Below the pieces are notes generated by a model, which worked only from the letters and a program-made list of their open reading frames with translations, searched no databases and had not been told where the DNA came from. Position numbers and translations under genes: made by a program. A DNA stretch of 64,000 bases from Microbacterium keratanolyticum (lineage in GTDB: Bacteria; Actinomycetota; Actinomycetes; Actinomycetales; Microbacteriaceae). Location of the stretch: positions 1,178,001 to 1,242,000 of the forward strand of contig NZ_JAFBBQ010000001.1 in the NCBI RefSeq assembly GCF_016907255.1, read 5' to 3'. This document shows, one piece after another, positions 17,804-32,620 of this stretch (position 1 is the stretch's first letter; each line of letters starts with the position of its first letter).

Positions 17804-19381
17804 TCAGCGAACGGCGAAGCGCACGCGCACGCCAGGCGGGAGCTGCGCAGCCAGGTCCAGGCACTCATCTGTCACGGCGCCGATGATCGGATATCCGCCC
17901 GTGAGCGGATGGTCCGGCAGGAACAGCACTGGCTGCCCGTCGGGCGGCACCTGCAGCGCACCCGTCACCGCGCCCTCGCTCGGCAGCTCGCCCTGTACCG
18001 ACCGCTGCAGTGGCTCCGCGCCCGCCAGGCGAATGCCGACGCGGTCGCCACGGGCCGTCACCTCCCACTCCTGACCTGTGAGCGCCTCAAGGGCATCGGC
18101 GGTGAACCAGTCATCGCGCGGCCCCAGGGTGATCTCCAGCGTGACGGTCTCGCCGGGTGCGGGAAGATCACGCGGCAGCGCGACGGGATCGACCAGATGC
18201 GGCGCGCTGCGCGGGTCCCCCAGAGCCACCGCGTCACCGGCCCGCAGGGGTGCAGGCCCGAGGCCCGCGAGGGTGTCGGTCGCGAGGCTGCCGAGGACCG
18301 GCCGTGAGCGGATGCCTCCGCGCACCGCGAGCACGGAGCGAAGGCCACGTTCGGGTGCACCGACCTGCAGCACGTCGCCGTCGAACACGGCGAAAGGGGC
18401 TCCGTGCGGAGCAGGACGCTCCTCGCCGTGACGATCTGTGAGGACGAGCTCGCCGACCGCGCCCGCAACGGCGACGACCAGAGCGCCGGTCAGTTTCAGA
18501 GCGGCTCCGCCGGCTGTGATCTCGAGCACCGCCGCATCCGGAGCATTGCCCACTGCGCGGTTCGCCGCCCGCATCGCCGTGCGATCCGCGATGCCCGACG
18601 CCGAGACGCCGAGGGCCGCGTTGCCCGGGCGACCGAGGTCTTGAATCAGGATCGGGAAGAGTGCGGAGAGGATGTCGATACGGCGCTGCGAATCGTCACG
18701 GTGGGGCTGGGGCGGACGAGCGATGAGCGACGCGTCTTGGGGTGAGGCCGGGGCGGCGAGGCGGGCCGCACGCACGAATCGGACCTGCGTTCCGGGGGCG
18801 AGCAGGGCCGGCGGTTCGCGCTCTGTGTCCCACATCACGGCATCCGTGCGACCGATGAGCTGCCAGCCGCCGGGGCTCTCCCGCGGATACACCCCGCTGA
18901 AGCGTCCTGCGAGCCCGACGGCTCCGGCGGGAACCCGCATACGCGGAGTCGCGCGGCGCGGCACATCGAACAGCGGGTCATCGCCGATCAGGTATCCGAA
19001 GCCGGGCGCGAAGCCCGCGAACGCCACCGTCCACGACGCGGCCAGGTGCCGGGCGATCACGTCCTCCACGGAGATGCCGAGCACGTCGGCGACGTAGGCC
19101 AGGTCGTCGCCGTCGTAGTGCACGGGAATCTCCACGAGCGCAGCATCGGCCGAGACATCTGCGGACGCATCGATCGTCCCGACGATCTCGGACAGCGCCT
19201 CCGCGGACACTCGTCGCGGCTCGAATCGCACCAGCACCGTCCGTGCGCCGGGCACGAGCTCCAGAAGGCCTGGCACGGCCGCAGCGGTGAGCGCTCGATT
19301 CAGCCGCATGGCCTCGTCGAGGTCGGCGGTCTCGACGAGGAGCGCCCGATCCGAGGCTCGCAGGATCCGCATCGAACTCAT
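17804..19381 (-). CDS. pxpBC: 5-oxoprolinase subunits B and C fused (PxpB-PxpC)
   Basis: A 525-residue fusion. The first about 215 residues match PxpB/KipI (carboxyltransferase subdomain [26 protein letters not shown] and [17 protein letters not shown]). The rest, from about residue 235, matches PxpC/KipA (biotin-dependent carboxyltransferase fold). With PxpA it forms the ATP-dependent 5-oxoprolinase that opens pyroglutamate to glutamate. In many bacteria the two subunits are separate genes. Start overlaps the pxpA stop by 4 bp. Confidence 0.85.
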
Positions 19382-20139
19382 ACCGCGAAGGGGGCGACGC
19401 GAACTCCGGATGCGTCGAGCCGTCGCCGTACCTCAAGGGCCATGGCGACGGCTCCCGGGCTGTCGCCGTGCACGCAGATCGAGTCGGCGCGCACCGGCAG
19501 AGTCGTCCCGTCGACAGCGTCGATCGTTCCGGTGTCGACGAGGCGCAGCATCCGCTCGGCCACCGTCGCCGGGTCATGCAGCACGGCGCCGCGCTCCGTG
19601 CGGGGCACGAGACGACCATCCGGCAGATACCCGCGGTCGGCGAAGGACTCGGCGGCGACCGCGAGTCCCGCTCGCTGCGCCCGCTCCAGGACGAGGCTTC
19701 CGGCGAGTCCCAGCAGGACGAGTCCCGGATCAACGGCGCACACCGCGGCGACGACCGCCGCCGCCTGCGCCTCGTCGTGGGCGATCGTGTTGTAGAGCGC
19801 ACCGTGCGGCTTGACGTAGGCGACGCGGCCGCCTGCCGCGGCGGCCCATGTGGAGAGGGTCGCGATCTGCTCTTCGACTTCGGCCTGGAGGACCGCTCCG
19901 GTGACATCCATCGCGGTGCGCCCGAAGCCTTCGAAGTCCCGATAGCTCGGATGCGCGCCGATCACGACGCCGCGGGCGATCGCGTTCCTCAGGGTCTCCT
20001 GGATGCCCGCCGGGGTGCCGGCGTGGAACCCGCACGAGACATTCGCACTGGTCACGACCTTGAGCATGCCCTCGTCGTCGCTCACGATCCGCCCGGGGGA
20101 ATTCTCGCCCAGGTCGGAGTTCAGATCGATGGATGCCAT
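19378..20139 (-). CDS. pxpA: 5-oxoprolinase subunit A (LamB/YcsF family)
   Basis: A 253-residue protein with family marks IDLNSDLGE at the N-terminus, [27 protein letters not shown] and AESFADRGY. It works with PxpBC to hydrolyse 5-oxoproline, a damage product of glutamine. ATG 20139 is the start; TACGGT lies 6 nt upstream, giving a probable leaderless transcript. First of a two-gene operon. Confidence 0.9.
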
Positions 20140-20145
20140 GCCCCC

Positions 20146-20151
20146 ACCGTA
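20146..20151 (-). promoter_or_regulatory. -10 box of a leaderless promoter (pxpA)
   Basis: TACGGT on the minus strand, then GGGGGC, then ATG 20139. Confidence 0.45.
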
Positions 20152-20216
20152 GGCGAGGTCTGATCCCCCGTGCTCGCCTGAACAGGATCGGGGGCGATAG
20201 AGAAGATCTGCGGTGC

Positions 20217-20222
20217 TACGCT
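20217..20222 (+). promoter_or_regulatory. -10 box of a leaderless promoter (membrane protein at 20229)
   Basis: TACGCT, then CCCGCC, then ATG 20229. It is divergent from the pxpA promoter about 70 bp away. Confidence 0.45.
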
Positions 20223-20228
20223 CCCGCC

Positions 20229-20762
20229 ATGCAGCACTCCAACGAGGCGCACACGTCAGCACCGCAGGACACAGAGTCGAGAAGTGATCCTGCGGCCATC
20301 AAGGAACGCATCTACGCAACCTTCACAGGACTCGCGATCGTGCTCGTCCAGAGCGCGAACGTCGACCACACCAGCGCCGTCCGTGCGAGCATAACCCTCC
20401 TCATCGGCATCCTGGCCATCGCTGCCGCCGGATTCGTCGCGGATCTGCTTGCGCATCTCGCGGTGTCCGGAACGTTCCCGCACGGCCCTGAGCTTCGTCG
20501 ACTCCTCGCCCTCACCGGCACAGCGATCGGATCAGCGATGGTGCCCCTGCTGGCACTCCTCCTCGCAGTGCTCGGCTGGATCGAGTTGCAGACGGCCCTC
20601 GCCATCGCCGCCGTCGCGTACGTCGGCGTGCTCGGGCTCGTCGGCTACGTCGCCGTCCGACGCACTCGGGTGTCGTGGTGGCGACAGCTGATCGCGCTGG
20701 GCATCCTCATCGCGCTCGGCTGCATCGTCATCGTCATCCAGCAGCTTGCACACGGACACTGA
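20229..20762 (+). CDS. Four-helix membrane protein, unknown function
   Basis: A 177-residue protein: a polar N-terminus with [15 protein letters not shown], then about four hydrophobic helices and a short tail. The form [18 protein letters not shown]...[11 protein letters not shown] recurs in actinobacterial hypothetical proteins, but no function is known to me. It ends exactly where the convergent ABC ATPase gene ends (20762/20763), with no space between the stops. Confidence 0.75.
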
Positions 20763-21524
20763 TTACCCGGCGAGGCCGGTGATCATCGAGACCAGCTCAT
20801 TGTGCGAGGTGTCGGCGACGCGCATTGTGCCGACCTGGGTGCCGCGACGCAGAACGGTGACACGGTCTGCGATCCGGAAGACCTGCTCCATGTTGTGGCT
20901 GACGATCACGACGGCGGTGCCGCGCTCGCGCAGACGCAGGATGAGCGACTCGACCTTCGCTGTCTCGGCCACACCGAGCGCAGCGGTCGGCTCATCCATG
21001 AGCACGAGGTTGCTCGCCCAGTGCGTGGCGCGCGAGATCGCGATCGCCTGCCGCTGACCGCCCGAGAGGTCCGACAGGGTCGCCTTCGCACTCGGGATGC
21101 GCACGTCGAGGTCGTCGACGAGCTTCTGCGTCTGCCGTGCCATCTCGGCGCGGTCGAGCACGGTGAACGGCCACACCCCCCGAGTCAGCTCGCGTCCCAG
21201 GAACAGGTTCATGTACACGGGCTGCTGGTCGACGAGCGCGAGGTCCTGGTAGACGACCTCGATGCCCTGCGCCTGCGCAGCCGAGGCATCCGCGAGCGAG
21301 ACCTTCTGCCCGCGCAGCAGGATCTCGCCGCCGCTGGGCTGGTAGACACCCGCGATGATCTTCATGAGTGTCGACTTGCCGGCGCCGTTGTCGCCGACGA
21401 GTGCGACGATCTCACCGGGCTCGACCCGCAGATCGAAGTTGTGGATCGCGGTCACCGCGCCGAAGCTCTTGGTGATTCCGCGCAGTTCGAGCGGGGCATC
21501 GATGGCGGTGTCGTTGACGCTCAT
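20763..21524 (-). CDS. Ribose-type sugar ABC transporter ATP-binding protein
   Basis: A 253-residue single-domain ATPase (unlike the double-domain RbsA), resembling FrcA. Walker A GDNGAGKST, Q-loop QDLALVDQQPV, signature LSGGQRQAIAISRA, Walker B LVLMDEPTAALG and switch His in VIVSHNMEQ. It energises the importer made with the permease at 22769 and the binding protein at 25712. Last gene of the operon; its start overlaps the stop of the YhfX-like gene by 4 bp. Confidence 0.9.
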   Translation of the reverse strand: MSVNDTAIDAPLELRGITKSFGAVTAIHNFDLRVEPGEIVALVGDNGAGKSTLMKIIAGVYQPSGGEILLRGQKVSLADASAAQAQGIEVVYQDLALVDQQPVYMNLFLGRELTRGVWPFTVLDRAEMARQTQKLVDDLDVRIPSAKATLSDLSGGQRQAIAISRATHWASNLVLMDEPTAALGVAETAKVESLILRLRERGTAVVIVSHNMEQVFRIADRVTVLRRGTQVGTMRVADTSHNELVSMITGLAG

Positions 21525-22765
21525 GCTCCGACCTCCTGCTGCGTGACCGCGAGCGCGGCCGTCTCGGCGGTGGCGCGCAGCGGTGGCGCGCCGTTCGAGG
21601 ACCAGATCTCCGCCAGCTGCGGGGATCCCGTCGAGAGCCCGCGGATGCCGGCGGTGAGCCCGCGGCTCACGAACACCTGCGGTCGGAACCCGAAGATCAC
21701 GGTGTCGCCCTCGGCGGCGTCGGCGGGAGCGTCGAGCGGAATGCGCGCGTAGTAGTCGATCGCCTCCGGCGCGGGCATCTCGACCGGACGAGCGGTGACG
21801 GTCGCGGGGTCTTCGCCGTCGCGCACGATGAGCGCCGACGTCGCGGGGATCCCGTGCACGGGGTCGACGTAGAGGCCGCCGCCGAAGACGTAGGCGCGGT
21901 CGTCCCAGAGGTGGGAGACCTCGGTCACGTAGGCGATGGCTGGCTCTTCGAGCAGGTCGACGCGTGCGTGCAGCGGAGTCGTGCCGGTGAGTCCATGCCC
22001 CGGCTCGACCTGCGTTGCGCCTGCCTCGGCGAGTCGCGCAAGGGTCGCGGTCGATGTCGTACCCGGAGCATTCATCTGCACATCTTCGAACCCGGCATCC
22101 TGCAGTCGCCGCTTCGCCTGAGCCAGCGTCTGCAGGTTCGGGGTCGTCTGCGCCTCCCCGCTCTCGCCGTCGACGAGCGTCGCAGGGAAGGTCGTCGCCC
22201 CGGCCACCCGCACACCGGGCAGTGCGTCGATCACCCGTGCATGCTCGACGATGCGCTCGGCGTCGAAGCCGCCCTCATGCCCGGTGTAAAAGCGGTCGCC
22301 GGGGGCGACGACGCGCAGCAGCACGTCCTGTACCCGACCGTGCGCGAGGGCGGCAGCGCCCGCCTCGCGTGCCTTCTGCTCCGAGAAGACCGTCCAGTAG
22401 CGGGGCTGCAGGGCGGATGCCTCGGCGGCCCGATGCCGCGGAATCTGCACGAGGTGCCCCACGTGCCCCGTGGCGAGTCCGCCCGTCGCGGCGGCGACGG
22501 CGCATTCGAGGTCGACACCGACAGCTTCGGTGATTCCGCCGCGACGGATCGCGCGCGACGCATCCGGATTGCGACCGATCTGCTTGGTCATCGCAAAGGG
22601 ACGCATTCCGAGACGTGCCGCCTCGGCGCTGATGGTGCGCGCGTTGCGCTCCACCGCGTCGAGGTCGATCACGAAGGTGTTGGGAGGCAGCTCACCGCTG
22701 CGGTGGAACGCAGCCGCGGCCTGCAGCAGTGCGGCGTTGCGACGCTGAAGAAGTGAGAGGAACAT
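21521..22765 (-). CDS. YhfX-like PLP-dependent enzyme (alanine racemase fold)
   Basis: A 414-residue fold-type III PLP enzyme. The PLP lysine is probably the K in PFAMTKQIGRNP (about residue 60). The C-terminal domain has GGGLYVDPVHG and VFGFRPQVFVSRG. It resembles E. coli YhfX, a racemase-like protein of unknown substrate that sits with the phosphotriesterase homologue Php, exactly as here. Start is 3 nt after the permease stop. It suggests that an amino sugar or amino-acid-like compound is processed by this operon; that is inference. Confidence 0.75.
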   Translation of the reverse strand: MFLSLLQRRNAALLQAAAAFHRSGELPPNTFVIDLDAVERNARTISAEAARLGMRPFAMTKQIGRNPDASRAIRRGGITEAVGVDLECAVAAATGGLATGHVGHLVQIPRHRAAEASALQPRYWTVFSEQKAREAGAAALAHGRVQDVLLRVVAPGDRFYTGHEGGFDAERIVEHARVIDALPGVRVAGATTFPATLVDGESGEAQTTPNLQTLAQAKRRLQDAGFEDVQMNAPGTTSTATLARLAEAGATQVEPGHGLTGTTPLHARVDLLEEPAIAYVTEVSHLWDDRAYVFGGGLYVDPVHGIPATSALIVRDGEDPATVTARPVEMPAPEAIDYYARIPLDAPADAAEGDTVIFGFRPQVFVSRGLTAGIRGLSTGSPQLAEIWSSNGAPPLRATAETAALAVTQQEVGA

Positions 22766-22768
22766 CGG

Positions 22769-23740
22769 TCACTGACCTTTCTTGCCGCGCAGCGACAGGG
22801 TGACGGCGAGAAGGATGATGACACCGCGCACGATCATCTGCTGCGCCACGGTGAGGCCTCCCAGCAGAAGTCCGTAGTTGATCATGCTCATGAACAGGCT
22901 GCCGACGACCGCACCGATGATCGAACCGCGACCTCCGGCGAGCGCCGTGCCACCGACGATCACGGCGGCGAGGACGCTCATCAGGTCCGCGGTGCCGAGT
23001 GTGTAGGTGGCACCCGCAAGGCGTCCGGCGTAGAGGATGCCGGCGAGTGCCGCAGCGATTCCCGAGAAGGTGAAGACCATGAGGCGCACCCGTGCCACCT
23101 TCACGCCGCTGACGCGGGCGGCCTGCGCGTTGTTGCCGACCGCGAGCACGTGCGCACCGGCCCGACGCTGGCGCAGCACGTGCCAGCCGAGGACCGCGAT
23201 CACGAGCGACCACCAGATGAGAATCGGCACACCGGCGAGGGTTCCGCCGCCGAAGATCCAGACGAACGTGGCATCCGTCACCGGCACCGACTGCAGGTTG
23301 GTGATCTGCTGCGCGAGACCCGCGACCAAGCCCATGGTGGCGAGGGTCACGAGAAACGACGGCAGGCGGAACGCGGTGATGAAGACACCGTTGACGAAGC
23401 CGACCAGCGCACCGACGAGCAGGCCGGCGAGCGCACCCGCCCACCACCAGCCGGTGACCTGCAGAGCGACCGCCGCAGACAACGCCGAGAGGGCGACGGT
23501 CGACCCGATCGACAGGTCGATCTCACCCAGGCTCAGCACGAACACCGTGCCGACGGCCATGATCGTGATCGGCGCCGCTTGCGTGGCGATGTTCACGAGC
23601 GTCGTGAGGTTGAGGAAGTTCGCGCCCTGCGTGATCGCGAAGAAGACGAACACGAGTACGAAGCCGATGTAGACGACGTACTTCTGCCAGTCGTGTCGCA
23701 CCCTCTGCAGCAGAGGGGTCGGGGTGGCAACGGTGGTCAT
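22769..23740 (-). CDS. Ribose-type sugar ABC transporter permease
   Basis: A 323-residue RbsC/FrcC-type permease with 8-10 helices. Family segments VFVLSLGEIDLSIGSTVALSA and GVKVARVRLMVFTFSGIAAALAGILYAGRL are present, and GGTALAGGRGSIIGAVVGSLFMSMINYGL lies near the C-terminus. ATG 23740 (MTTVATPTP) is chosen; it overlaps the kinase stop by 4 bp. Forms the membrane channel of the operon's importer. Confidence 0.9.
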   Translation of the reverse strand: MTTVATPTPLLQRVRHDWQKYVVYIGFVLVFVFFAITQGANFLNLTTLVNIATQAAPITIMAVGTVFVLSLGEIDLSIGSTVALSALSAAVALQVTGWWWAGALAGLLVGALVGFVNGVFITAFRLPSFLVTLATMGLVAGLAQQITNLQSVPVTDATFVWIFGGGTLAGVPILIWWSLVIAVLGWHVLRQRRAGAHVLAVGNNAQAARVSGVKVARVRLMVFTFSGIAAALAGILYAGRLAGATYTLGTADLMSVLAAVIVGGTALAGGRGSIIGAVVGSLFMSMINYGLLLGGLTVAQQMIVRGVIILLAVTLSLRGKKGQ

Positions 23741-24645
23741 GCGGATGCTCCTGTCAACGATGACATCGAACGACGAGCCAGCTCGATCGCTCCGAGGACG
23801 GCTCCGGCGGAGCCCAGGGTAGAGATGCGCAACGGCACATCGGGGTGGCCGAGACGGGCGAGCCACTGCTGGATCGGGGCGCGCAGCTCTTCACGAGAGC
23901 CGATCCCGCCGCCGAGGACGAAAGCGCCGGGGTCGACGACAGCGATCACGGATGCAAGCGCGTACGCGATCCACCGAGCCTGTGCGTCCACGGCGGCCAC
24001 CGCATCGGGCTGACCTGCTGCAGCGCGGTCGAACACTTCGCGCACGTTGCGGGCACCCGAATCGCGCGCGGCGAGAACATCACCGGCGACGGCCTCTTCC
24101 AGCGCCCCGCGTCGGTGATGGGCGGGATCCAGCGGGTCGGCGCCCAGGGGGAGATACCCGATCTCGCCGGCCGCGCCCCGCGCACCACGGACGAGCTCCC
24201 CGCCGAGGACGAGTCCCATGCCGATGCCGGTGCCGACAGCGACGTACGCGAAGGAATCCGTCGTCGCCGCAGCGACGAGCTCTCCGATGGCAGCGACGTT
24301 GGCATCGTTGTCGAGCGTGACGGGGCACGTGAAGTGGGCCCCGAGAGCGGCAACGAGATCGAACTCGACGTCCCCCAGATTGGGAGCATCCGAGAAGCCT
24401 CCGTCTGCCTGCGGCACCCCGGCGCCGCCCAGGCCGATCGCCACGACGGGCCCGACGCCCACCTCGTCCCGCAGCGCCGACACCGTCGTCACGAGCGCGT
24501 CGAGCAGATCCACGCCGCCGCCGCTCGGCGTCGGAACCACACGCTCCGCCTCCAGGGAGAGCCGCTGCGCGGTCGCATCCGCCCTCACCGCTCCGACGTG
24601 CATCTTCGTGCCGCCGAGATCGATGCCGATCAGCAGGCCGGTCAC
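23737..24645 (-). CDS. ROK-family sugar kinase-like protein without zinc cysteines
   Basis: A 302-residue ROK protein with phosphate-binding GIDLGGTKMHVGAV, catalytic DNDANVAAIGE and the GTGIGMGLVLGGELVRGARGAAGEIGY block. The usual zinc motif CxCGxxGCxE is absent: the region reads HHRRGALEEAV. Such loss is seen in some ROK sugar kinases with unusual substrates. It probably phosphorylates the imported compound. Start overlaps the Php stop by 4 bp and its own stop overlaps the permease start. Confidence 0.8.
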   Translation of the reverse strand: MTGLLIGIDLGGTKMHVGAVRADATAQRLSLEAERVVPTPSGGGVDLLDALVTTVSALRDEVGVGPVVAIGLGGAGVPQADGGFSDAPNLGDVEFDLVAALGAHFTCPVTLDNDANVAAIGELVAAATTDSFAYVAVGTGIGMGLVLGGELVRGARGAAGEIGYLPLGADPLDPAHHRRGALEEAVAGDVLAARDSGARNVREVFDRAAAGQPDAVAAVDAQARWIAYALASVIAVVDPGAFVLGGGIGSREELRAPIQQWLARLGHPDVPLRISTLGSAGAVLGAIELARRSMSSLTGASA

Positions 24646-25652
24646 GCGGTCACCTCCAGCATGCGGACGGGGGTCGTGCGCGTCATCGCATCGATCGCCG
24701 ACTCGTCGACGCCCCGCTCGCGCAGCATCGGCAGGAAGACGTCCGCGAGATACATGTAGCCGCGTTGTCCGTGCGTGCCCGGGTTCATCCAGACTTCCGC
24801 GCCGGTGAGGTCCTGCGCCAGCAGAATCCGCTCGCCGTAGCCCTCGGTGACAAGCTGGGCGACCATGTCGGCCCGGCCCTCGTCGCTGCGCGCGAACGCG
24901 TGCTTCACGAAGTCGCCATCAGGGCGCTGCGCCGGCGCGGGCTCCAGGAAGAAGTCCCAGGTCTCTTTGCCGATCGTGTCGACAGCGATGAGCGCGCCGC
25001 GATCCAGCACGGCACGGGCGACATCGAGGCTCAACTGCGTATCGATGTGCCCGATCACGACGCGATCGAGGTCGGCGCCGTCGGACTGCAGGATGTCGAG
25101 CTGCTCCTGCGTCATGGTCCCGTGCGTCGTGTGCGTGAAGATCGCCAGACCGTTCTCGGCGTGTGCGCGAGCGACAGCGCGCAGCATCCGCTCCTCGAAC
25201 GGGGTGATCTCGCCCAGGCTCGTGGCCTGCTCGCCGTAGACACCGGCGCGCACGTCGGTGGTGCCGATGCCGGTGGCCGCGTCCGCCACCAGTCGAGCCA
25301 CGAGCTGACCGAGCGGAGCCTCACGCGCCCATCCCGGCGCGTAGGCCTCCAGGTAGATCGAGGTTCCTGCGACGATGTCGACCCCACTCTGCCGCGAGAT
25401 CTCACGCAGCTGGGTCACATTCGCACCGTCGGCGCTGCGGCCCACGACTCCGTACGGCGACAGGTCGACGACCGCGCCGAAACCGGCGGAGTGCAAGCCA
25501 TCGAGCGCCCCGATCGCCAGGTCGACCTGGTTGTCGGCGCGACCCGCCGTCAGCCACGGACCCGGCACCAGCGACAACAGGTGCTCATGGGGCATGACGC
25601 GACCGAGATCAGCCGACGGCACGGGTCCGAAGACCGTCATCACAGAGGACAT
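24642..25652 (-). CDS. php: Phosphotriesterase-family (Php-like) amidohydrolase
   Basis: A 336-residue TIM-barrel metal hydrolase. Metal ligands are visible as the HxH of MPHEHLL near residue 20, FTHTTHG (His), GHIDTQ (His) and the late Asp in LLAQDLTGAEVW. These are the five-ligand pattern of the phosphotriesterase/lactonase family. Relatives act on lactones or phosphorylated sugar lactones; true phosphotriesterase activity is not implied. In E. coli its homologue Php neighbours yhfX, as here. ATG 25652 is chosen; 59 nt separate it from the binding-protein gene. Confidence 0.85.
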   Translation of the reverse strand: MSSVMTVFGPVPSADLGRVMPHEHLLSLVPGPWLTAGRADNQVDLAIGALDGLHSAGFGAVVDLSPYGVVGRSADGANVTQLREISRQSGVDIVAGTSIYLEAYAPGWAREAPLGQLVARLVADAATGIGTTDVRAGVYGEQATSLGEITPFEERMLRAVARAHAENGLAIFTHTTHGTMTQEQLDILQSDGADLDRVVIGHIDTQLSLDVARAVLDRGALIAVDTIGKETWDFFLEPAPAQRPDGDFVKHAFARSDEGRADMVAQLVTEGYGERILLAQDLTGAEVWMNPGTHGQRGYMYLADVFLPMLRERGVDESAIDAMTRTTPVRMLEVTA

Positions 25653-25711
25653 GGGCTCTCTTTCGAGGAAGGAGGGAGCGGTGAGTGCACACCGCCCCCT
25701 GGCTGCTGAGG

Positions 25712-26845
25712 CTACTTTCCGGTGACGCTCGCCGGCGGCTCGACGCCGTAGTCGGCGAGCCATCCTGCGTCGAGGTTGTCGGCGCTGACCTTGGTCGGGT
25801 CGCTCGCGACCAGCGCGGGGGCCGTCTTGCCCAGCACACCGTACGCGCCCGCGCGGGCGAGGCCGACACCGATGTCGATCGATCCGTTTCCGACCATGCC
25901 GGCGACGTTCGTCCCGTTGAGCATCGCGGCGGCGACCGTGGTGTCGAGATCGTTGGTGACGACCTGAATATCGGTGCGACCGGATGCCTTGATCGCCGCG
26001 AGCACGCCCTGTGCAGCCGTCGCCCACGAGACGTAGATGCCCTTGAGGTTCGGGTTCTTCGCGATCATCGCGGCGGCGATGGTCTGCGTGTCGGTCTCCT
26101 GCGCGAAGCCCTGCTCCTCGACGATCGTGATGTCGGGGTACGAATAGGCCGTCCACGCCTTGAACGACTCATCGCGCTGATTCGTGAACCAGAAGTTCGC
26201 GTTGTAGCTCAGATAGCCGATCTCGCCCGTGCCGTCGAGCGCGTCGCCGAGGATCTCCGCGTTGGCGCGACCCGCCTTGGCGAGGTCTTCCGTCACGATC
26301 GAGACAAAGTCGGTCCCGGCTTTCCAGCCCGCGGGCGGCGTTGTCATGATGACGAGCTTCGCACCGGCATCCTTGATCGGCTGGAACGAGGTGGCCGCCG
26401 AGGTGGGGTCGACGGCGATCGCCACGACGATGTCGGGGTTGAGCGCCATGACGGTCTGCACGTTGTTCGCCTGGGTCGCGGCGTCGAAGCCGGCCTGGGT
26501 GCTCGCGACGACCTCGACGCCGAGACGCTCGAACTCCTGGCGCGCGCCCTGTTCGACGGCGGCGACGAAGTCTCCGGAGGTGTGCCAGATGAAGGCTGCG
26601 GTGAGGTCGCCGTCGGCGATCTGCTTCTCTTCATCCGCGGTGAGAACGACGTCGGCCAGGGGACCGGGAGTCTCGCCGTTGGGGCCGGTGAACTCGAGGC
26701 TGGGCTCGGCGGCGGGAGTCTTCGACTCGGCGGCGGAATCACCGGAGGATGCTGCGGGGGCGGCGCAGCCGGTGAGCAGAAGTGCGCCGGCAACGATGCC
26801 GGTGAGAGCCACGTGCGCGCCGCGGCGAGCGATTCGGGTAGTCAT
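25712..26845 (-). CDS. Sugar ABC transporter substrate-binding lipoprotein (ribose type)
   Basis: A 377-residue extracellular receptor of the RbsB/periplasmic-binding-protein-1 family. Signal peptide with lipobox LLLTGC (Cys near residue 27), then an Ala/Ser/Glu linker, then the two-lobe fold. The start is ATG 26845 (MTTRIARRG) with GAAAGG 7 nt upstream; a TTG five codons earlier is unlikely. First gene of the operon whose products import and process an unidentified ligand. The divergent ROK regulator is 235 bp away. Confidence 0.9.
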   Translation of the reverse strand: MTTRIARRGAHVALTGIVAGALLLTGCAAPAASSGDSAAESKTPAAEPSLEFTGPNGETPGPLADVVLTADEEKQIADGDLTAAFIWHTSGDFVAAVEQGARQEFERLGVEVVASTQAGFDAATQANNVQTVMALNPDIVVAIAVDPTSAATSFQPIKDAGAKLVIMTTPPAGWKAGTDFVSIVTEDLAKAGRANAEILGDALDGTGEIGYLSYNANFWFTNQRDESFKAWTAYSYPDITIVEEQGFAQETDTQTIAAAMIAKNPNLKGIYVSWATAAQGVLAAIKASGRTDIQVVTNDLDTTVAAAMLNGTNVAGMVGNGSIDIGVGLARAGAYGVLGKTAPALVASDPTKVSADNLDAGWLADYGVEPPASVTGK

Positions 26846-26914
26846 GAGAAAGCCTTTCAACCTGCACAGCGGGAGGGCTGACCCCTGGGTGGGGTGTCGC
26901 CGTTGACATGCCTA

Positions 26915-26937
26915 TTTGATTGCATTGCGAAATCAAA
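26915..26937. promoter_or_regulatory. Inverted repeat between ABC operon and ROK regulator
   Basis: TTTGATT (26915-26921) and AATCAAA (26931-26937) are perfect 7-bp arms separated by 9 bp. They lie in an unusually AT-rich stretch between divergent genes. A candidate operator for the ROK regulator at 27081. The intergenic stretch of 235 bp holds no other clear gene. Confidence 0.5.
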
Positions 26938-27080
26938 GTCAAGCCAGAATCGATAAGAAGTGGGAAATTGCCCCTGATGGCGACCCGCAGTCGACGTCCG
27001 ATCACCCTCATTGCAATCTTCGTGACGCGAATGTGGAAGTATGGTCGAACCAGCCGATTTCGCCGCGCAGAGGGGGTTTC

Positions 27081-28220
27081 GTGGTCCACGACACACGTGA
27101 GATCAACCGCAACACGGTGCTCGCACACCTGCTGCGTCACAGACCCGTCACGCGCAAGCACCTCGCCGATCTCACCGGCATCTCGGCCGCCACCGTCACC
27201 CGCGCGATCGATCAGCTCATCGCCGACGGCCTCGTATACGAGGTGTCCGAGCTCGTCTCCGAGCAGCGGGGGCGCCGAGCTGTCCTCCTCGACATCCACA
27301 CCCCGCACAGTGAAGTCGTCGGAGTCGACCTCGGAGCATCCAACACCCGGCTCGTGACCGCCGACCTCGGAGGAGCGATCCGCGCGCAGACCAGCCTGCC
27401 GACACCGCAGGGCGCCGACGCACACGAACTCGCGCGGTGGGTCGCGAATGAGATCCGCAGCCTCGCCGGCGCCGAGCATCCGCACCTCCGGTGCGCTTTC
27501 GTCGGCCTGCCAGGAGCCGTGAGCAGCGACGGTCACACGATCACCAACGCCCCCAACATGCCGCAGCTTGAGCGCTCCGAGTTCATCGACCTGCTCACGC
27601 AGGAACTCGGCTTCCCCGCGCGCGGCGACAATGACGCGAACCTTGCTCTCCTCGGCGAGCAGCACTTCGGCGCCGCTCGTGGCATCCCCACCGCCGTCAT
27701 GCTGACGATCGGCGCCGGCCTCGGCGCGGGCGTCGCCGTCGACGGGCGCATCCTGCGCGGCAAACAGGGCGTGGTCGGCGAGTTCGGCCAGCTTCCCGCC
27801 GGCCCCCTCGGCACGCGCCTCGAGCTCATGGTGACCGGCCCCGGCCTCACGCGCCTCGCCGCCGAATCGGGGATCGCGATCACCTCCCCCGCCGAGATCT
27901 TCGCCGCCGATGCCCCCCAGCCGCTGCGCTCCCTGCGGGCGCACTTCGATCAGGCACTGCTCATCGTCCTGACCGCCGCGACCGTCTCCTGTGAGCCCGA
28001 GGTCATCGTGCTCGGCGGCGGCGTCTCTGCATCGCTCGTCGACGACCTGCCACGCTACGAGACGATGCTCACGCACCACCTCGGACTCGCCCCCCGGCTG
28101 GTGTTCTCCGCCCTCGGTGAGTACGCCGGCGCACACGGAGCGGCGGTGGCCGCCCTGCACGAGCGCTATCTCACACTGGGCGTGCACGAGTCAGAGCTCG
28201 CCACCCTCCCGGCTTCCTGA
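27081..28220 (+). CDS. ROK-family transcriptional regulator
   Basis: A 379-residue NagC/Mlc-type regulator. N-terminal winged helix: INRNTVLAHLLRHRPVTRKHLADLTGISAATVTRAIDQL split over residues 7-45. It then has the ROK domain with GVDLGASNTRLV, RGDNDANLALLGEQ and GAGLGAGVAVDGRILRGKQGVVGEFGQLP. The zinc cysteines are missing here too. GTG 27081 has AGAGGGGG about 7 nt upstream; a longer frame upstream is unlikely. Divergent from the yhfX/php operon, so probably its repressor with the imported ligand as effector. Confidence 0.85.
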   Translation: MVHDTREINRNTVLAHLLRHRPVTRKHLADLTGISAATVTRAIDQLIADGLVYEVSELVSEQRGRRAVLLDIHTPHSEVVGVDLGASNTRLVTADLGGAIRAQTSLPTPQGADAHELARWVANEIRSLAGAEHPHLRCAFVGLPGAVSSDGHTITNAPNMPQLERSEFIDLLTQELGFPARGDNDANLALLGEQHFGAARGIPTAVMLTIGAGLGAGVAVDGRILRGKQGVVGEFGQLPAGPLGTRLELMVTGPGLTRLAAESGIAITSPAEIFAADAPQPLRSLRAHFDQALLIVLTAATVSCEPEVIVLGGGVSASLVDDLPRYETMLTHHLGLAPRLVFSALGEYAGAHGAAVAALHERYLTLGVHESELATLPAS

Positions 28221-28224
28221 ACGA

Positions 28225-29220
28225 CTACGCCGACTCGCGCACGACGAGTTCGGTCGACAGGATCGTCGTCTGCGGCGGCGTGCCTCCGGCGAGGCGCGCG
28301 AGCAGCACGTTCGCCATCTCCTCGCCCTGGGCGTACATCGGCTGCCGCACTGTCGTGAGCAGTGGCGTCGTCGTCAGGGCGATGGGCGAATCATCGAAGC
28401 CGATGAGCGCCACATCTTCGGGCACGCGGATCCCCGCTGCGTTCAGCACGGTGAGAGCACCACGCGCCATCAGGTCACTCGCCACGAAGACCGCATCCGG
28501 GCGTCCGACGGCGAGGATCTGTCGCATCGCAGCGGCACCGCTGGCTTCCGTGTAGTCACCCTCCGCTTCGGCGAAGGCCACGAGTCCGGCATCCGCCAGA
28601 GTTGCGTGGAAGCCCTGCGCACGATCCGCCGCGGCAAGCATCGTGCGTGGCCCGTTGATCGCCGCGATGCGCGAATGCCCCGCCTGCACGAGGTGTGCGG
28701 TGGCCGTGCGCCCGCCCGCGACGTTGTCGATGTCGACCACGTAGTCGTTGTCGCCCACCGCCGCAGGACGACCGCCGAAGACCACGGGGACGGCATCGGC
28801 GATCTGATCGATGAAGGCGTCGCTCGTGTGGTGCGACACGATGAGGGCACCGTCGACGCCGCCGTTGCGGATGAAGCTCGTCATCTTGTTGCCGGGGTCA
28901 TTGCTCGCGATGAGCAGGTTGAGCAGATAGTCGGATCCGCCCAGCGCGCCAGTGATCCCCGCCACGATCGCCGCGAAGAACGGGTCGCCGAAGAACGTGG
29001 TGGTGTCTTCGGGAACGATCAGCGCGATCGCGTGGGTCTGCCGCGAGGCCAGCGACCGCGCCGCACGGTTGGGCACGTAGTTGAGGCGCTGGATCGCCGC
29101 GTTCACCGCGTCCAGTGCCTCCGGGCTCACAGCCGTCGAGCCGTTGACCACCCGCGACACCGTCGAGCGCGAGACTCCCGCAGCGGAGGCCACTTCTTCG
29201 ATCGTCGCCCGTGACGGCAC
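28225..29220 (-). CDS. cebR: LacI-family repressor, CebR-like
   Basis: A 331-residue repressor. N-terminal helix-turn-helix ATIEEVASAAGVSRSTVSRVVNGS and hinge RLNYVPNRAARSLASRQT, then the ligand-binding domain. Last gene of the cellobiose operon, 27 nt after bglC. Two perfect TGGGAGCGCTCCCA sites, the known CebR operator sequence of Streptomyces, precede cebE, so the repressor is probably autoregulated and released by cello-oligosaccharides. GTG 29220 is chosen; GTG 29238 would add six residues. It ends 4 nt from the convergent ROK regulator gene. Confidence 0.85.
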   Translation of the reverse strand: MPSRATIEEVASAAGVSRSTVSRVVNGSTAVSPEALDAVNAAIQRLNYVPNRAARSLASRQTHAIALIVPEDTTTFFGDPFFAAIVAGITGALGGSDYLLNLLIASNDPGNKMTSFIRNGGVDGALIVSHHTSDAFIDQIADAVPVVFGGRPAAVGDNDYVVDIDNVAGGRTATAHLVQAGHSRIAAINGPRTMLAAADRAQGFHATLADAGLVAFAEAEGDYTEASGAAAMRQILAVGRPDAVFVASDLMARGALTVLNAAGIRVPEDVALIGFDDSPIALTTTPLLTTVRQPMYAQGEEMANVLLARLAGGTPPQTTILSTELVVRESA

Positions 29221-29247
29221 AGCTCCCCCTTCGTGCACCGCCGGACG

Positions 29248-30678
<1,431 letters not shown>

Positions 30679-30683
30679 GCGAG

Positions 30684-31571
30684 TCATCCTTTCACTGCGC
30701 CTTGCATGATGCCACTGACCAGTTGCCTGCCAGCCACCGCGAAGAGGATGAGCAGCGGAAGGGTGGCGAGCACCGCTCCCGTGAGCACGATCGAGTAGTC
30801 GATGTAGTAGCCCGACTGCAGCTGGCTGAGCGCTGTCTGCAGAGTGGGGTTCTGGGGAGAGAGCACGATCAGCGGCCACAGGTAGTCGGTCCAGGCCGTC
30901 ATGAACGTGAAGAGCCCGAGGATCGCCATGGCCGGGCGCGCGGCGGGAACGCCGACGGTCAGGAAGGTGCGGAACTGGTTCGCACCGTCCATCCGGGCGG
31001 CTTCGATGAGCTCGTCGGGGATGACGTCGACGAGGTACTGCCGCATGAAGAACACACCGAACGCCGTCACGAGGGTCGGCACGATCACCGCCCCGATCGA
31101 ACCGGTCCATCCCAGTTCGCGCATCACCATGAACAGGGGGATGATTCCCAGCTGCGTGGGAATGGCCATCGTCGCGATCACGAAGATCATCAGCCCGTCG
31201 CGTCCGCGGAAACGGAGTTTGGCGAAGGCGTAGCCCGCGAGGGTCGAGAAGGTCACGACCGAGATCGTGATGATCGCGGAGATCAGGAACGAGTTGCCCA
31301 GCGCCAGCCAGAAGGGGATCGCGTCGAGCACGGTGGCGGCGTTGGCGAGGAAGTTGCCACCCGGAATCAGCGGCAGGGTCTCGCCGCGCGTCGCGTTGGT
31401 GCCGCTCGCGACGACGACCGACCACCACAGCGGGTAGACGCTGCCGATGAGGAACGCGGCGAGGAGCCCGTAGGTGAGAAAGCCGGGGCGACTGCCGATG
31501 CCGGCGGTTCCTCCCGCACGGCCACGACGACGGACCTTCTCGGGAACGCTGAGAAGCTCGGTGGCGGTCAT
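30684..31571 (-). CDS. cebG: Cellobiose ABC transporter permease CebG
   Basis: A 295-residue MalG-type permease with six helices and the EAA loop ELIEAARMDGANQFRTFLTVGVPAARPAM. It pairs with CebF. N-terminus is short and cytosolic (MTATELLSVPEKVRRRG). Start overlaps the cebF stop by 4 bp. No ATPase gene is in this operon; such transporters share an MsiK-like ATPase encoded elsewhere. Confidence 0.9.
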   Translation of the reverse strand: MTATELLSVPEKVRRRGRAGGTAGIGSRPGFLTYGLLAAFLIGSVYPLWWSVVVASGTNATRGETLPLIPGGNFLANAATVLDAIPFWLALGNSFLISAIITISVVTFSTLAGYAFAKLRFRGRDGLMIFVIATMAIPTQLGIIPLFMVMRELGWTGSIGAVIVPTLVTAFGVFFMRQYLVDVIPDELIEAARMDGANQFRTFLTVGVPAARPAMAILGLFTFMTAWTDYLWPLIVLSPQNPTLQTALSQLQSGYYIDYSIVLTGAVLATLPLLILFAVAGRQLVSGIMQGAVKG

Positions 31572-32599
31572 CGGCCTTCCTCCTTTGCGGCGGATCGGAT
31601 GCGACGGCGAGCCGCGCGGTTCTTCGGGGCGTCTCCGGTGGAGATCCGCCGGGAGAGCAGGAAGTTGATCACGCCGATGCCGACGATGAGCACGAAGAGC
31701 AGGATGGCGACGGCGGATGCTTCGCCGAGATCGCGCCGGAAGAAGGCGAGCTCCCAGAGGAACAGCACCGTGGTCTGGAACTGGCGATCGCTGCCGCCGA
31801 TGCCGCCCGCAGTCGAGGCGTCGAACAGCTTCGGTTCAGCGAAGATCTGCAGTCCGCCGATCGTCGCGGTGATGATGACGAAGATGAGGGTGGGACGGAT
31901 CGTCGGGATCGTGATCGAGAAGAAGCGGCGCACGGGGCCCGCCCCATCGAGTGCGGCCGACTCGTAGAGGTCGCGCGGAACCGCCTGCATGGCGGCGAGC
32001 AGGATGAGGGCGTTGTATCCGGTCCAACGGAAGTTGACCATGACGGCGATCGCCACGTGCGAGAGGAAGGTGTTGTGCTTCCACTCCTGGTCGGCGATGC
32101 CGATCAGGTTCAGCAGATTGTTGGCGAGACCATCGGCCTCGTTGAAGATGCTGGAGAAGATGAGAGCCACCGCGACCGGTGTGACGACGAACGGGATCAG
32201 CACGCTCATCCGCCAGAAGGTCGGCGCGCGCAGGCCGCGGTCGAGCAGGTATGCGACGACGAGAGCGACGGTCAGCTGCGGGATGGCAGAGAGCACGAAG
32301 ATGCTGAGCGTGTTGCCGATCGAGTTCCAGAACATGTGATCGCCGAGGATCTCGACGAAGTTGCCGAGGCCCACGAACCCGCCTTCGCCCTTGAGCAGAT
32401 CCCACTCGTGCATCGCGACGTAGACCGTGTACACGAGGGGGAACAGGCCGACCAGGCCGAACAGGAGGAAGAAGGGGGCGATGTAGAAGTACGGCGATGC
32501 GCTGTGATCGAACCGCGAGAGGCGGTGACGACGGCGCGGGGCCGGTGCCGTGGGCGGCGGAGCCGCAGGGGCGGATGCGCGGGGCGCGGTGAGCGTCAT
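31568..32599 (-). CDS. cebF: Cellobiose ABC transporter permease CebF
   Basis: A 343-residue MalF-type permease. Long Ala/Pro-rich cytosolic N-terminus (about 35 residues), six helices, EAA loop DLYESAALDGAGPVRRFFSITIPTIRPT. ATG 32599 is preceded by AAGGACACACC. It is separated from cebE by a 111-nt gap that contains a strong hairpin, which probably lowers permease expression relative to the binding protein. Confidence 0.9.
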   Translation of the reverse strand: MTLTAPRASAPAAPPPTAPAPRRRHRLSRFDHSASPYFYIAPFFLLFGLVGLFPLVYTVYVAMHEWDLLKGEGGFVGLGNFVEILGDHMFWNSIGNTLSIFVLSAIPQLTVALVVAYLLDRGLRAPTFWRMSVLIPFVVTPVAVALIFSSIFNEADGLANNLLNLIGIADQEWKHNTFLSHVAIAVMVNFRWTGYNALILLAAMQAVPRDLYESAALDGAGPVRRFFSITIPTIRPTLIFVIITATIGGLQIFAEPKLFDASTAGGIGGSDRQFQTTVLFLWELAFFRRDLGEASAVAILLFVLIVGIGVINFLLSRRISTGDAPKNRAARRRIRSAAKEEGR

Positions 32600-32620
32600 G
32601 GTGTGTCCTTGCAAGCGAGA

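What the first reader, a model, noticed from the sequence alone, without database searches (positions are those of the whole stretch)
20763..28220. Uncharacterised import-and-processing operon with Php and YhfX-like enzymes
Six genes with overlapping or near-touching ends encode a ribose-type importer, a ROK kinase, a phosphotriesterase-family hydrolase and a YhfX-like PLP enzyme. A divergent ROK regulator completes the set. E. coli keeps php and yhfX together in the yhf operon, whose substrate is unknown. Here the pair is joined to a dedicated transporter and a kinase, which suggests a full catabolic route: import, phosphorylation, lactone or ester opening, and PLP chemistry on an amino-bearing product.
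Basis: partly seen in the sequence, partly recalled or inferred. Interest (0 to 1): 0.78.

Follow-up and report, generated by a model that had tools for sequence, protein, structure and literature searches.

The report
Amino-sugar operon around orphan YhfX enzyme
A soil bacterium carries a seven-gene set that probably imports an unusual nitrogen-bearing sugar and breaks it down, and its relatives tie a long-unexplained enzyme family, YhfX, to amino-sugar breakdown in a way that can now be tested.

Summary
In detail: six minus-strand genes (binding protein, PTE-family hydrolase, ROK kinase, permease, YhfX, single-domain ATPase) face a ROK regulator. Between them lies a perfect inverted repeat, TTTGATT-N9-AATCAAA, found once in the genome.

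Relatives change the reading. In 43 related loci the hydrolase is PTE (17, all Actinomycetota) or an unrelated M20 hydrolase (20), never both. Both track YhfX: PTE orthologues in 6 genomes, all among the 7 of 249 with YhfX; M20 orthologues in exactly the 7 of 198 with YhfX. In 25 of 43 loci the operon also carries an amino-sugar-phosphate-deaminase-like gene: a SIS enzyme (22) or NagB (3), never both. The window lacks it; its genome has NagB elsewhere.

Best reading: import of an N-acyl amino sugar, deacylation, YhfX chemistry on the freed amine, phosphorylation, deamination. Lactone or ester opening is not supported, and orthology of the hydrolase to E. coli Php is not shown. Substrate and YhfX reaction are inferred. 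The yhfX mentions I opened in print (3 of 10 papers) name no function.

The parts
25712..26845 (-). Lipoprotein-type solute-binding protein of the ribose (CUT2) class; pocket unlike ribose-binding protein
24642..25652 (-). PTE-family binuclear metal hydrolase, inferred N-deacylase
   Evidence: PTE 173.7 bits; ligand positions H22 H24 E141 H174 H202 D281 invariant in 17 rows; orthologues only in YhfX genomes of the family sample
23737..24645 (-). ROK-family sugar kinase
   Evidence: ROK 148.7 bits; N113-D114 and E161 invariant in 17 rows, no Cys cluster in the alignment
22769..23740 (-). CUT2-type permease
   Evidence: BPD_transp_2 127.9 bits
21521..22765 (-). YhfX: fold-type III PLP enzyme, inferred to act on the freed amino sugar
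   Evidence: PDB 4kbx E 9.3e-68; K61 and E254-P-G invariant in 37 rows
20763..21524 (-). Single-domain importer ATPase
   Evidence: ABC_tran 104.6 bits
27081..28220 (+). Divergent ROK-family transcriptional regulator (start codon chosen by alignment)
   Evidence: ROK 117.4 bits plus MarR-type helix-turn-helix
26915..26937 (.). Inverted repeat TTTGATT-N9-AATCAAA in the divergent promoter region; inferred ROK operator
   Evidence: Perfect repeat, the only site in the window at up to 3 mismatches and in the genome at up to 2; in 14 of 16 actinobacterial-type intergenic regions at up to 3 mismatches and best in the locus
17804..20142 (-). PxpA and PxpBC (5-oxoprolinase) genes downstream; association suggestive only
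   Evidence: NCBIfam PxpA 322 bits, PxpB/PxpC domains; near the operon in 4 of 19 actinobacterial-type loci, all without the deaminase gene

Best explanation
This is a catabolic operon for an N-acylated amino sugar. Step 1 (family evidence strong, ligand inferred): a CUT2-type importer takes up the compound. Step 2 (inferred): the PTE-family hydrolase, replaced by an M20 hydrolase in Alphaproteobacteria, cuts the N-acyl amide inside the cell. Step 3 (inferred, least certain): YhfX, a PLP enzyme of the alanine-racemase fold, acts on the freed primary amine; the simplest role is to invert the amino-bearing carbon (an amino-sugar 2-epimerase), giving glucosamine or a similar common form. Step 4 (inferred from family): the ROK kinase phosphorylates it. 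Step 5 (shown in relatives by gene content, supplied elsewhere in this genome): an amino-sugar-6-phosphate deaminase, a SIS (NagB-II-like) or NagB enzyme, releases ammonia and a ketose phosphate. The divergent ROK regulator controls the set through the TTTGATT-N9-AATCAAA site. My odds by layer: dedicated co-regulated catabolic operon 0.95; amino-sugar endpoint 0.65; amide rather than lactone/ester hydrolysis 0.55; YhfX on the same amine that is phosphorylated 0.4; epimerase 0.2-0.25. The number in this field is for the chain without the epimerase.
For: Two unrelated amino-sugar-phosphate deaminase families sit in the operon: SIS in 22 of 43 loci and NagB in 3, never both; in the 23 of these 25 loci that have the importer ATPase the gene is on the same strand beside it, 22 within 50 bp or overlapping, L050 at 826 bp. 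The SIS proteins tested have NagB-II as best NCBIfam model (7 of 7) and the L019 NagB passes the NagB cut-off (263.7 against 236.9). Literature precedent that SIS (AgaS) and NagB-like enzymes serve the same deamination: PMC3668189, passages. PTE (17) and M20 (20) are mutually exclusive, each tied to YhfX. Amidase precedent in the PTE family: mammalian PTER hydrolyses N-acetyltaurine, PMC11374699, passages. The importer pocket is shared by PTE- and M20-type operons: in 36 of 36 binding proteins W at RbsB position 9, R at 141, W at 190, D at 215. Two loci (L032, L081) replace importer plus hydrolase by an amino-acid-permease-family (APC) transporter and keep YhfX, kinase and SIS, as expected if they take up the free amine.
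Against: The SIS proteins are well under the NagB-II equivalog cut-off (170-278 against 430), so their substrate may differ. 18 of 43 loci, the window included, have no deaminase gene at hand. All 24 M20-side loci lack an operon kinase. The binding protein differs at one pocket position between groups (N in 14, D in 22), so the ligands may be related rather than identical. E. coli-type yhf operons (5 loci) carry neither SIS, NagB nor M20. The Glu metal ligand is also in 15 of 18 other PTE-family proteins, so it does not mark amidases. No PLP enzyme acting on a free amino sugar in this way is known to me (recalled; one search gave two papers, neither of them such an enzyme by its listing). YhfX matches D-threonine and D-3-hydroxyaspartate aldolases weakly, so an aldolase is possible. 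Loci were collected by their YhfX and many are close relatives.
Confidence: 0.45

Rival explanations
1. The substrate is a sugar or amino sugar joined by an amide to an amino acid (or a glycated amino acid). The hydrolase splits it; kinase and deaminase or deglycase handle the sugar half; YhfX racemises the amino-acid half.
For: YhfX has the alanine-racemase fold, and E. coli YhfX weakly matches ornithine racemase. M20 enzymes of the ArgE/DapE type act next to a free carboxylate (recalled). 5-oxoprolinase genes lie near 4 of 19 actinobacterial-type loci. E. coli keeps frlABCDR, for the Amadori product fructoselysine, beside yhf, and APC permease + SIS + kinase as in L081 and L032 recalls frl.
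Against: The APC-type loci without hydrolase still keep YhfX with kinase and SIS, so YhfX seems to belong to the sugar half. NagB in three operons fits an amino sugar, not a deglycase. Direct comparison with E. coli frl is weak: FrlA 19% identity, E 0.013; FrlB 22%, E 2e-11.
Confidence: 0.25
2. One reading: phosphorylation, lactone or ester opening by the PTE-family enzyme, then PLP chemistry on an amino product.
For: PTE-family lactonases exist; the phospho-furanose lactonase model matches at 45.5 bits (cut-off 630). Kinase, hydrolase and YhfX are translationally coupled.
Against: M20 hydrolases, which are peptide and amide hydrolases (recalled), stand in for PTE in 20 of 43 loci that have no kinase. 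NagB or SIS in 25 of 43 loci is not explained by it.
Confidence: 0.12
3. PTE-type and M20-type operons serve different substrates; only the importer, YhfX and regulator are homologous, and the deaminases are separate acquisitions.
For: Pocket position 235 differs by group; the kinase is confined to one side; M20 and PTE fall in separate parts of the YhfX tree.
Against: Four pocket positions are invariant across both types. SIS enzymes are on both sides, and the SIS/NagB exchange occurs within the M20 side.
Confidence: 0.18

Closest known systems
E. coli yhf operon (yhfSTU-php-yhfWXYZ)
   Same: YhfX family enzyme (4kbx match over 1-391) together with a PTE-family hydrolase; sugar-phosphate enzyme nearby (YhfW).
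   Different: No YhfS, T, U, W or Z here; a CUT2 importer, ROK kinase and ROK regulator instead; YhfX forms a separate clade (100/99); hydrolase not shown to be the Php orthologue.
N-acetylglucosamine catabolism with NagK or PTS, NagA, and NagB or NagB-II
   Same: Sugar kinase, N-deacylation, amino-sugar-6-phosphate deaminase, ROK (NagC-type) regulator.
   Different: No NagA in the operon; deacylation is inferred to come before phosphorylation and to use PTE or M20 enzymes; YhfX has no counterpart.
Archaeal deacetylase-first chitobiose pathway with a SIS glucosamine-6-phosphate deaminase (the deaminase seen as a citation in PMC3668189; the pathway recalled)
   Same: Order of steps: deacetylate, then phosphorylate, then SIS deaminase.
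   Different: Different enzyme families, no YhfX, chitin oligomers.
Frl (fructoselysine) operon of E. coli and Bacillus
   Same: Importer or APC permease, SIS enzyme, kinase.
   Different: SIS closer to NagB-II than to FrlB; ROK, not PfkB, kinase; hydrolase and YhfX added.
Mammalian PTER, N-acetyltaurine amidohydrolase (PMC11374699, passages)
   Same: PTE family; a His-His-Glu metal site is named there.
   Different: Different substrate and organism; orthology not tested.

Membership tests
YhfX family | YhfX-like C-terminal domain over Pfam cut-off | tested here: met
   PF21279 74.0 bits against 27
YhfX family | Invariant PLP lysine in the N-terminal barrel | tested here: met
   K61 invariant in 37 aligned YhfX; its role as the PLP lysine is recalled from fold-type III enzymes
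Alanine racemase | Both Ala_racemase_N and Ala_racemase_C domains | tested here: not met
   Only the N domain matches; the C domain is YhfX-like_C
E. coli yhf operon | php equivalog (PRK09875) next to yhfX | tested here: not met
   154.9 bits against cut-off 486
E. coli yhf operon | yhfS, yhfT, yhfU, yhfW, yhfZ present | tested here: not met
   No match in the own-genome stretch L051 at 60 bits or more
Php orthology | Hydrolase forms one clade with E. coli-type Php | tested here: inconclusive
   Own clade 100/100; best tree puts Php with other PTE proteins; held-together tree not rejected, p-AU 0.378
PTE family (PF02126) | Profile match and six metal-ligand positions | tested here: met
   173.7 bits against 22.4; H22 H24 E141 H174 H202 D281
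Organophosphate hydrolase / phospho-furanose lactonase equivalogs | Curated cut-off | tested here: not met
   90.5 against 500; 45.5 against 630
ROK sugar kinase | ROK domain without helix-turn-helix, catalytic Asp | tested here: met
   148.7 bits; D114 invariant in 17 rows
ROK sugar kinase | Zinc motif CxCGxxGCxE (recalled) | tested here: not met
   No Cys cluster at that place in the alignment
Ribose importer RbsABC | Ribose contacts of RbsB (numbering recalled) | tested here: not met
   R141 and D215 kept; N13, N64, D89-R90, N190 and Q235 not kept in the window protein
CUT2 importer | Sugar-type binding protein and permease | tested here: met
NagB (relatives) | TIGR00502 cut-off | tested here: met
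   L019 263.7 against 236.9; L050 213.6, under it
NagB-II (relatives) | NF046059 cut-off | tested here: not met
   Best model for all seven SIS proteins scanned, but 170-278 bits against 430
Amino-sugar catabolic operon | Enzymes act on an amino sugar | not testable with these tools
   Needs assays

The most novel reading that the evidence does not exclude
YhfX is a PLP-dependent epimerase of free amino sugars: it forms an aldimine with the amine at C2 of an open-chain 2-amino-aldose and inverts that carbon, as alanine racemase does for an amino acid, so that an unusual N-acyl amino sugar (for example of manno or talo form) can enter the glucosamine or galactosamine route. The hydrolase slot before it is filled by either of two unrelated deacylases and the slot after it by either of two unrelated deaminases.
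Probability: 0.2. Interest if true: 0.85.

Novelty: new variant of a known kind. Interest (0 to 1): 0.6.

Why it matters
php and yhfX of E. coli are annotated only as putative hydrolase and PLP-binding protein. Their family members here sit in operons whose other steps are recognisable, so the question 'what does YhfX do' becomes a set of cheap assays. If YhfX acts on amino sugars it adds a new substrate class for fold-type III PLP enzymes, and a deacylate-first amino-sugar route spread patchily over Actinomycetota, Alphaproteobacteria and, in part, Chloroflexota, partly on plasmids.

Tried and rejected
Glycated amino acids (Amadori) as first choice: considered because E. coli frl lies beside yhf and L081/L032 have APC permease, SIS and kinase; downgraded when NagB appeared in the same operon slot and direct comparisons were weak.

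Decarboxylase by an ODC-like EPG motif: E254-P-G is invariant, but whether it contacts the cofactor could not be checked; left as a lead.

D-threonine-aldolase-like retro-aldol: profile matches only at E 2e-5 to 7e-3 over the N-terminal barrel; not excluded.

5-oxoprolinase as part of the pathway: 4 of 19 actinobacterial-type loci, all among the 7 without the deaminase (hypergeometric 0.009), but these are two pairs of near relatives; suggestive only. Ruegeria L030 has a PxpA too, about 5 kb away with two other genes and gabTD between.

Glu metal ligand as a mark of amidases: rejected, it is in 15 of 18 other PTE-family proteins.

YhfX structure: no job was accepted; the machine was busy. The binding-protein model was made after busy answers at 68, 101, 105, 107.

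Rows left out of the 43-locus count: short pieces fetched again in longer form (L002-L009, L035, L036, L052, L053, L060-L065, L067-L072); L037 (G673) and L066 (G1135), not fetched in longer form; L016 (5-kb contig); L022 (near copy of L021); L059 (operon in broken pieces); L082 and L083 (same loci as L015 and L011); five further Aminobacter plasmids not opened. L013 is in the count but not in alignment A1, the SBP set or the tree. Kept but weak: L028 (contig ends upstream), L057 (NGR234, genes missing), L054 (YhfX alone). In L023 NagB lies in two overlapping frames; described, not mended.

Papers: 121 were listings. I opened passages of PMC11374699, PMC3668189 and three of the ten papers holding 'yhfX', where it appears only in gene lists; several of the other hits are not biology by title. 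PMC13311154 (PTER and N-acetyl-beta-alanine) was seen only in the listing.
Full report
What is there. Six genes on the minus strand, 26845 down to 20763, encode a ribose-class binding protein, a PTE-family hydrolase, a ROK kinase, a permease, YhfX and a single-domain ATPase; a ROK regulator runs the other way at 27081-28220. Three of the five junctions overlap by 4 bp, one has a 3-bp gap and one, binding protein to hydrolase, a 59-bp gap. The window lies in a 3.07-Mb single-contig genome whose nearest named match for the operon is Microbacterium esteraromaticum, YhfX 90% identical. PF02126 has a single match in the genome, the one in this operon.

Control site. The space between regulator and binding protein holds TTTGATTGCATTGCGAAATCAAA at 26915-26937, a perfect inverted repeat that overlaps a TTGACT hexamer. 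It is the only match in the genome at up to 2 mismatches, with none for the reversed control pattern, and the only one in the window at up to 3, where shuffles give 0.06. In 14 of 16 actinobacterial-type loci the intergenic region holds a version with at most 3 mismatches that is the best in its locus; L044 and L081 do not. That the ROK regulator binds it is inferred.

Relatives. I surveyed the YhfX C-terminal domain: 8 of 396 genomes of the order, 4 of 296 of the phylum, 2 of 289 of an alphaproteobacterial class, 7 of 198 of one rhodobacterial family and 7 of 249 of the own family. The distribution is sparse and patchy. Together with a scan of named genomes (19 loci) and plasmids (19 records) this gave 43 loci of the ROK-associated kind that I compared in one table (rows left out are told under Tried and rejected), and 5 of the E. 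coli yhf kind. The YhfX tree separates the yhf kind (100/99) from the rest.

Exchangeable hydrolases. Of the 43 loci, 17 carry the PTE-family hydrolase, 20 an M20 metallohydrolase, none both, 6 neither: L032, L081, L020, L028 (contig ends upstream), L057 (operon broken) and L054 (YhfX alone). The M20 protein tested is an ArgE/DapE-type deacylase by profile (TIGR01910 155.9 bits, under its cut-off of 217.6), and the GH(T/L)D and DEESG motifs are in 20 of 20. Both hydrolases track YhfX. In the own family, 6 of 249 genomes have a PTE orthologue (381 bits or more, 56-100% identity; the next match anywhere is 125 bits), and all 6 are among the 7 with YhfX (2e-11 if genomes were independent). The seventh is L081, the APC-permease kind. 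In the rhodobacterial family the 7 genomes with the M20 orthologue are exactly the 7 with YhfX, of 198. On plasmids the 12 records with an M20 protein at 54% identity or more are all YhfX records; the next listed is at 31% or less. Among five M20-side or hydrolase-free genomes searched, four have no PTE-family protein and one has one. Since M20 enzymes are amide and peptide hydrolases (recalled) and the PTE family includes the N-acetyltaurine amidohydrolase PTER (PMC11374699, passages), the common reaction is most likely amide hydrolysis. This rests on the two hydrolases doing the same job, which is inferred.

The missing step. In 22 of 43 loci a SIS-domain gene is part of the operon, and in 3 others (L019, L023, L050) NagB is there instead; no locus has both. 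In the 23 of these 25 loci that have the importer ATPase, the gene is on the same strand beside it; 22 overlap or lie within 50 bp, and L050 is 826 bp away. The SIS proteins scanned have the NagB-II deaminase as best NCBIfam model in 7 of 7 cases but stay below its cut-off (170-278 against 430). SQSG, HGP and a C-terminal lysine are invariant in 19 aligned proteins. NagB of L019 passes the NagB cut-off (263.7 against 236.9); that of L050 does not (213.6). L019 and L023 are near relatives, so NagB arrived at least twice, not three times for certain. A published case of the two families serving the same reaction is AgaS (SIS) and AgaI (NagB-like) in galactosamine catabolism (PMC3668189, passages). 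The window genome has no such SIS enzyme: its best match to the operon SIS proteins is GlmS-like (109 bits), the others at most 41 bits. It does have a NagB elsewhere, 247.1 bits, over the cut-off, which could serve the step. Against this: 18 of 43 loci have no deaminase in the operon.

The importer. The binding-protein model (mean pLDDT 89.9) has sugar-binding proteins as its nearest solved folds, which shows class, not ligand. At the positions that bind ribose in RbsB (numbering recalled), only R141 and D215 are kept in 36 of 36 homologues; position 9 is W and position 190 is W in 36 of 36; the D89-R90 pair is lost; position 235 is N in 14 and D in 22. So the ligand is not ribose, and PTE-type and M20-type operons recognise the same or closely related compounds.

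Kinase and transporter variants. The ROK kinase is in 19 of 19 actinobacterial-type loci and in none of the 24 others. Two loci without importer and hydrolase, L032 (Embleya plasmid) and L081, have an APC-family permease with YhfX, kinase and SIS. The simplest reading is that they take up the amine that the hydrolase makes in the others, which places YhfX on the amine side. This is the main ground for giving YhfX the amino sugar and not the acyl half as substrate, and it rests on two loci.

YhfX itself. K61 and the EPG motif at 254-256 are invariant in 37 proteins. Apart from 4kbx, the profile finds D-3-hydroxyaspartate and D-threonine aldolases at E 2e-5 to 7e-3, over the N-terminal barrel only; E. 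coli YhfX touches ornithine racemase at 28 bits. Racemase-type and aldolase-type chemistry are both open. I favour inversion at the amino carbon because kinase and deaminase follow it, which an aldolase would make useless. No structure of the window YhfX could be predicted.

Import, kinase, hydrolase and YhfX are indeed joined and conserved. The hydrolase is not shown to be the Php of E. coli. Lactone or ester opening does not explain the M20 exchange, and the deaminase was out of sight in this window.

Novelty. Each part belongs to a known family and amino-sugar operons are a known kind; the combination with YhfX, and its exchangeable deacylases and deaminases, I did not find described. My searches returned no paper on the function of YhfX by listing, and the three of ten 'yhfX' papers that I opened list the gene only; the library lacks most subscription journals.

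Noticed in passing
window 17804-20142: PxpA and PxpBC (5-oxoprolinase) genes lie beside the operon here, directly after the ATPase in M. esteraromaticum (L010), and on the regulator side in L045 and L047; only loci without the SIS gene have them among the 19 actinobacterial-type loci.
   Followed up: partly
L085 3304-10224; L086 3176-10285: Another operon of unknown function on Paracoccus and Rhizobium plasmids: LacI regulator, CUT2 importer with single ATPase, a PTE-family protein, glutamine amidotransferase, BtpA/SgcQ, TenA and a PfkB or ribokinase gene.
   Followed up: no
L084 1911-14345: In E. coli K-12 the fructoselysine operon frlABCDR lies next to, and convergent with, yhfSTU-php-yhfWXYZ.
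   Followed up: partly
L048, L049: E. coli-type yhf operons (YhfZ, U, T, Php, S, X, W) also occur in Actinomycetota.
   Followed up: no
L033 8937-9968: The Cetobacterium yhf operon has an extra gene annotated as amidase family protein between yhfT and php; its NCBIfam amidase matches are weak, at most 24 bits.
   Followed up: no
L029, L031, L055, L056, L073, L080: Two binding-protein genes in a row in front of one permease, as if the importer serves two ligands.
   Followed up: no
L059; L057: The operon is in broken pieces in Rhizobium sp. RCAM05350 and lacks the regulator, M20 and binding-protein genes in S. fredii NGR234.
   Followed up: no
L042 11591-12232: An open frame that reads like a GNAT-type acetyltransferase follows PTE in an importer-less locus (by eye, not searched).
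   Followed up: no
window 20133-20762: A 209-aa open frame, hydrophobic by eye, convergent with the ATPase gene; no NCBIfam match at E 1e-10.
   Followed up: no
window 28225-32614: Next to the regulator, by eye from the open frames, a LacI-type regulator, a GH1-type glycosidase and two sugar-importer permeases; not searched.
   Followed up: no
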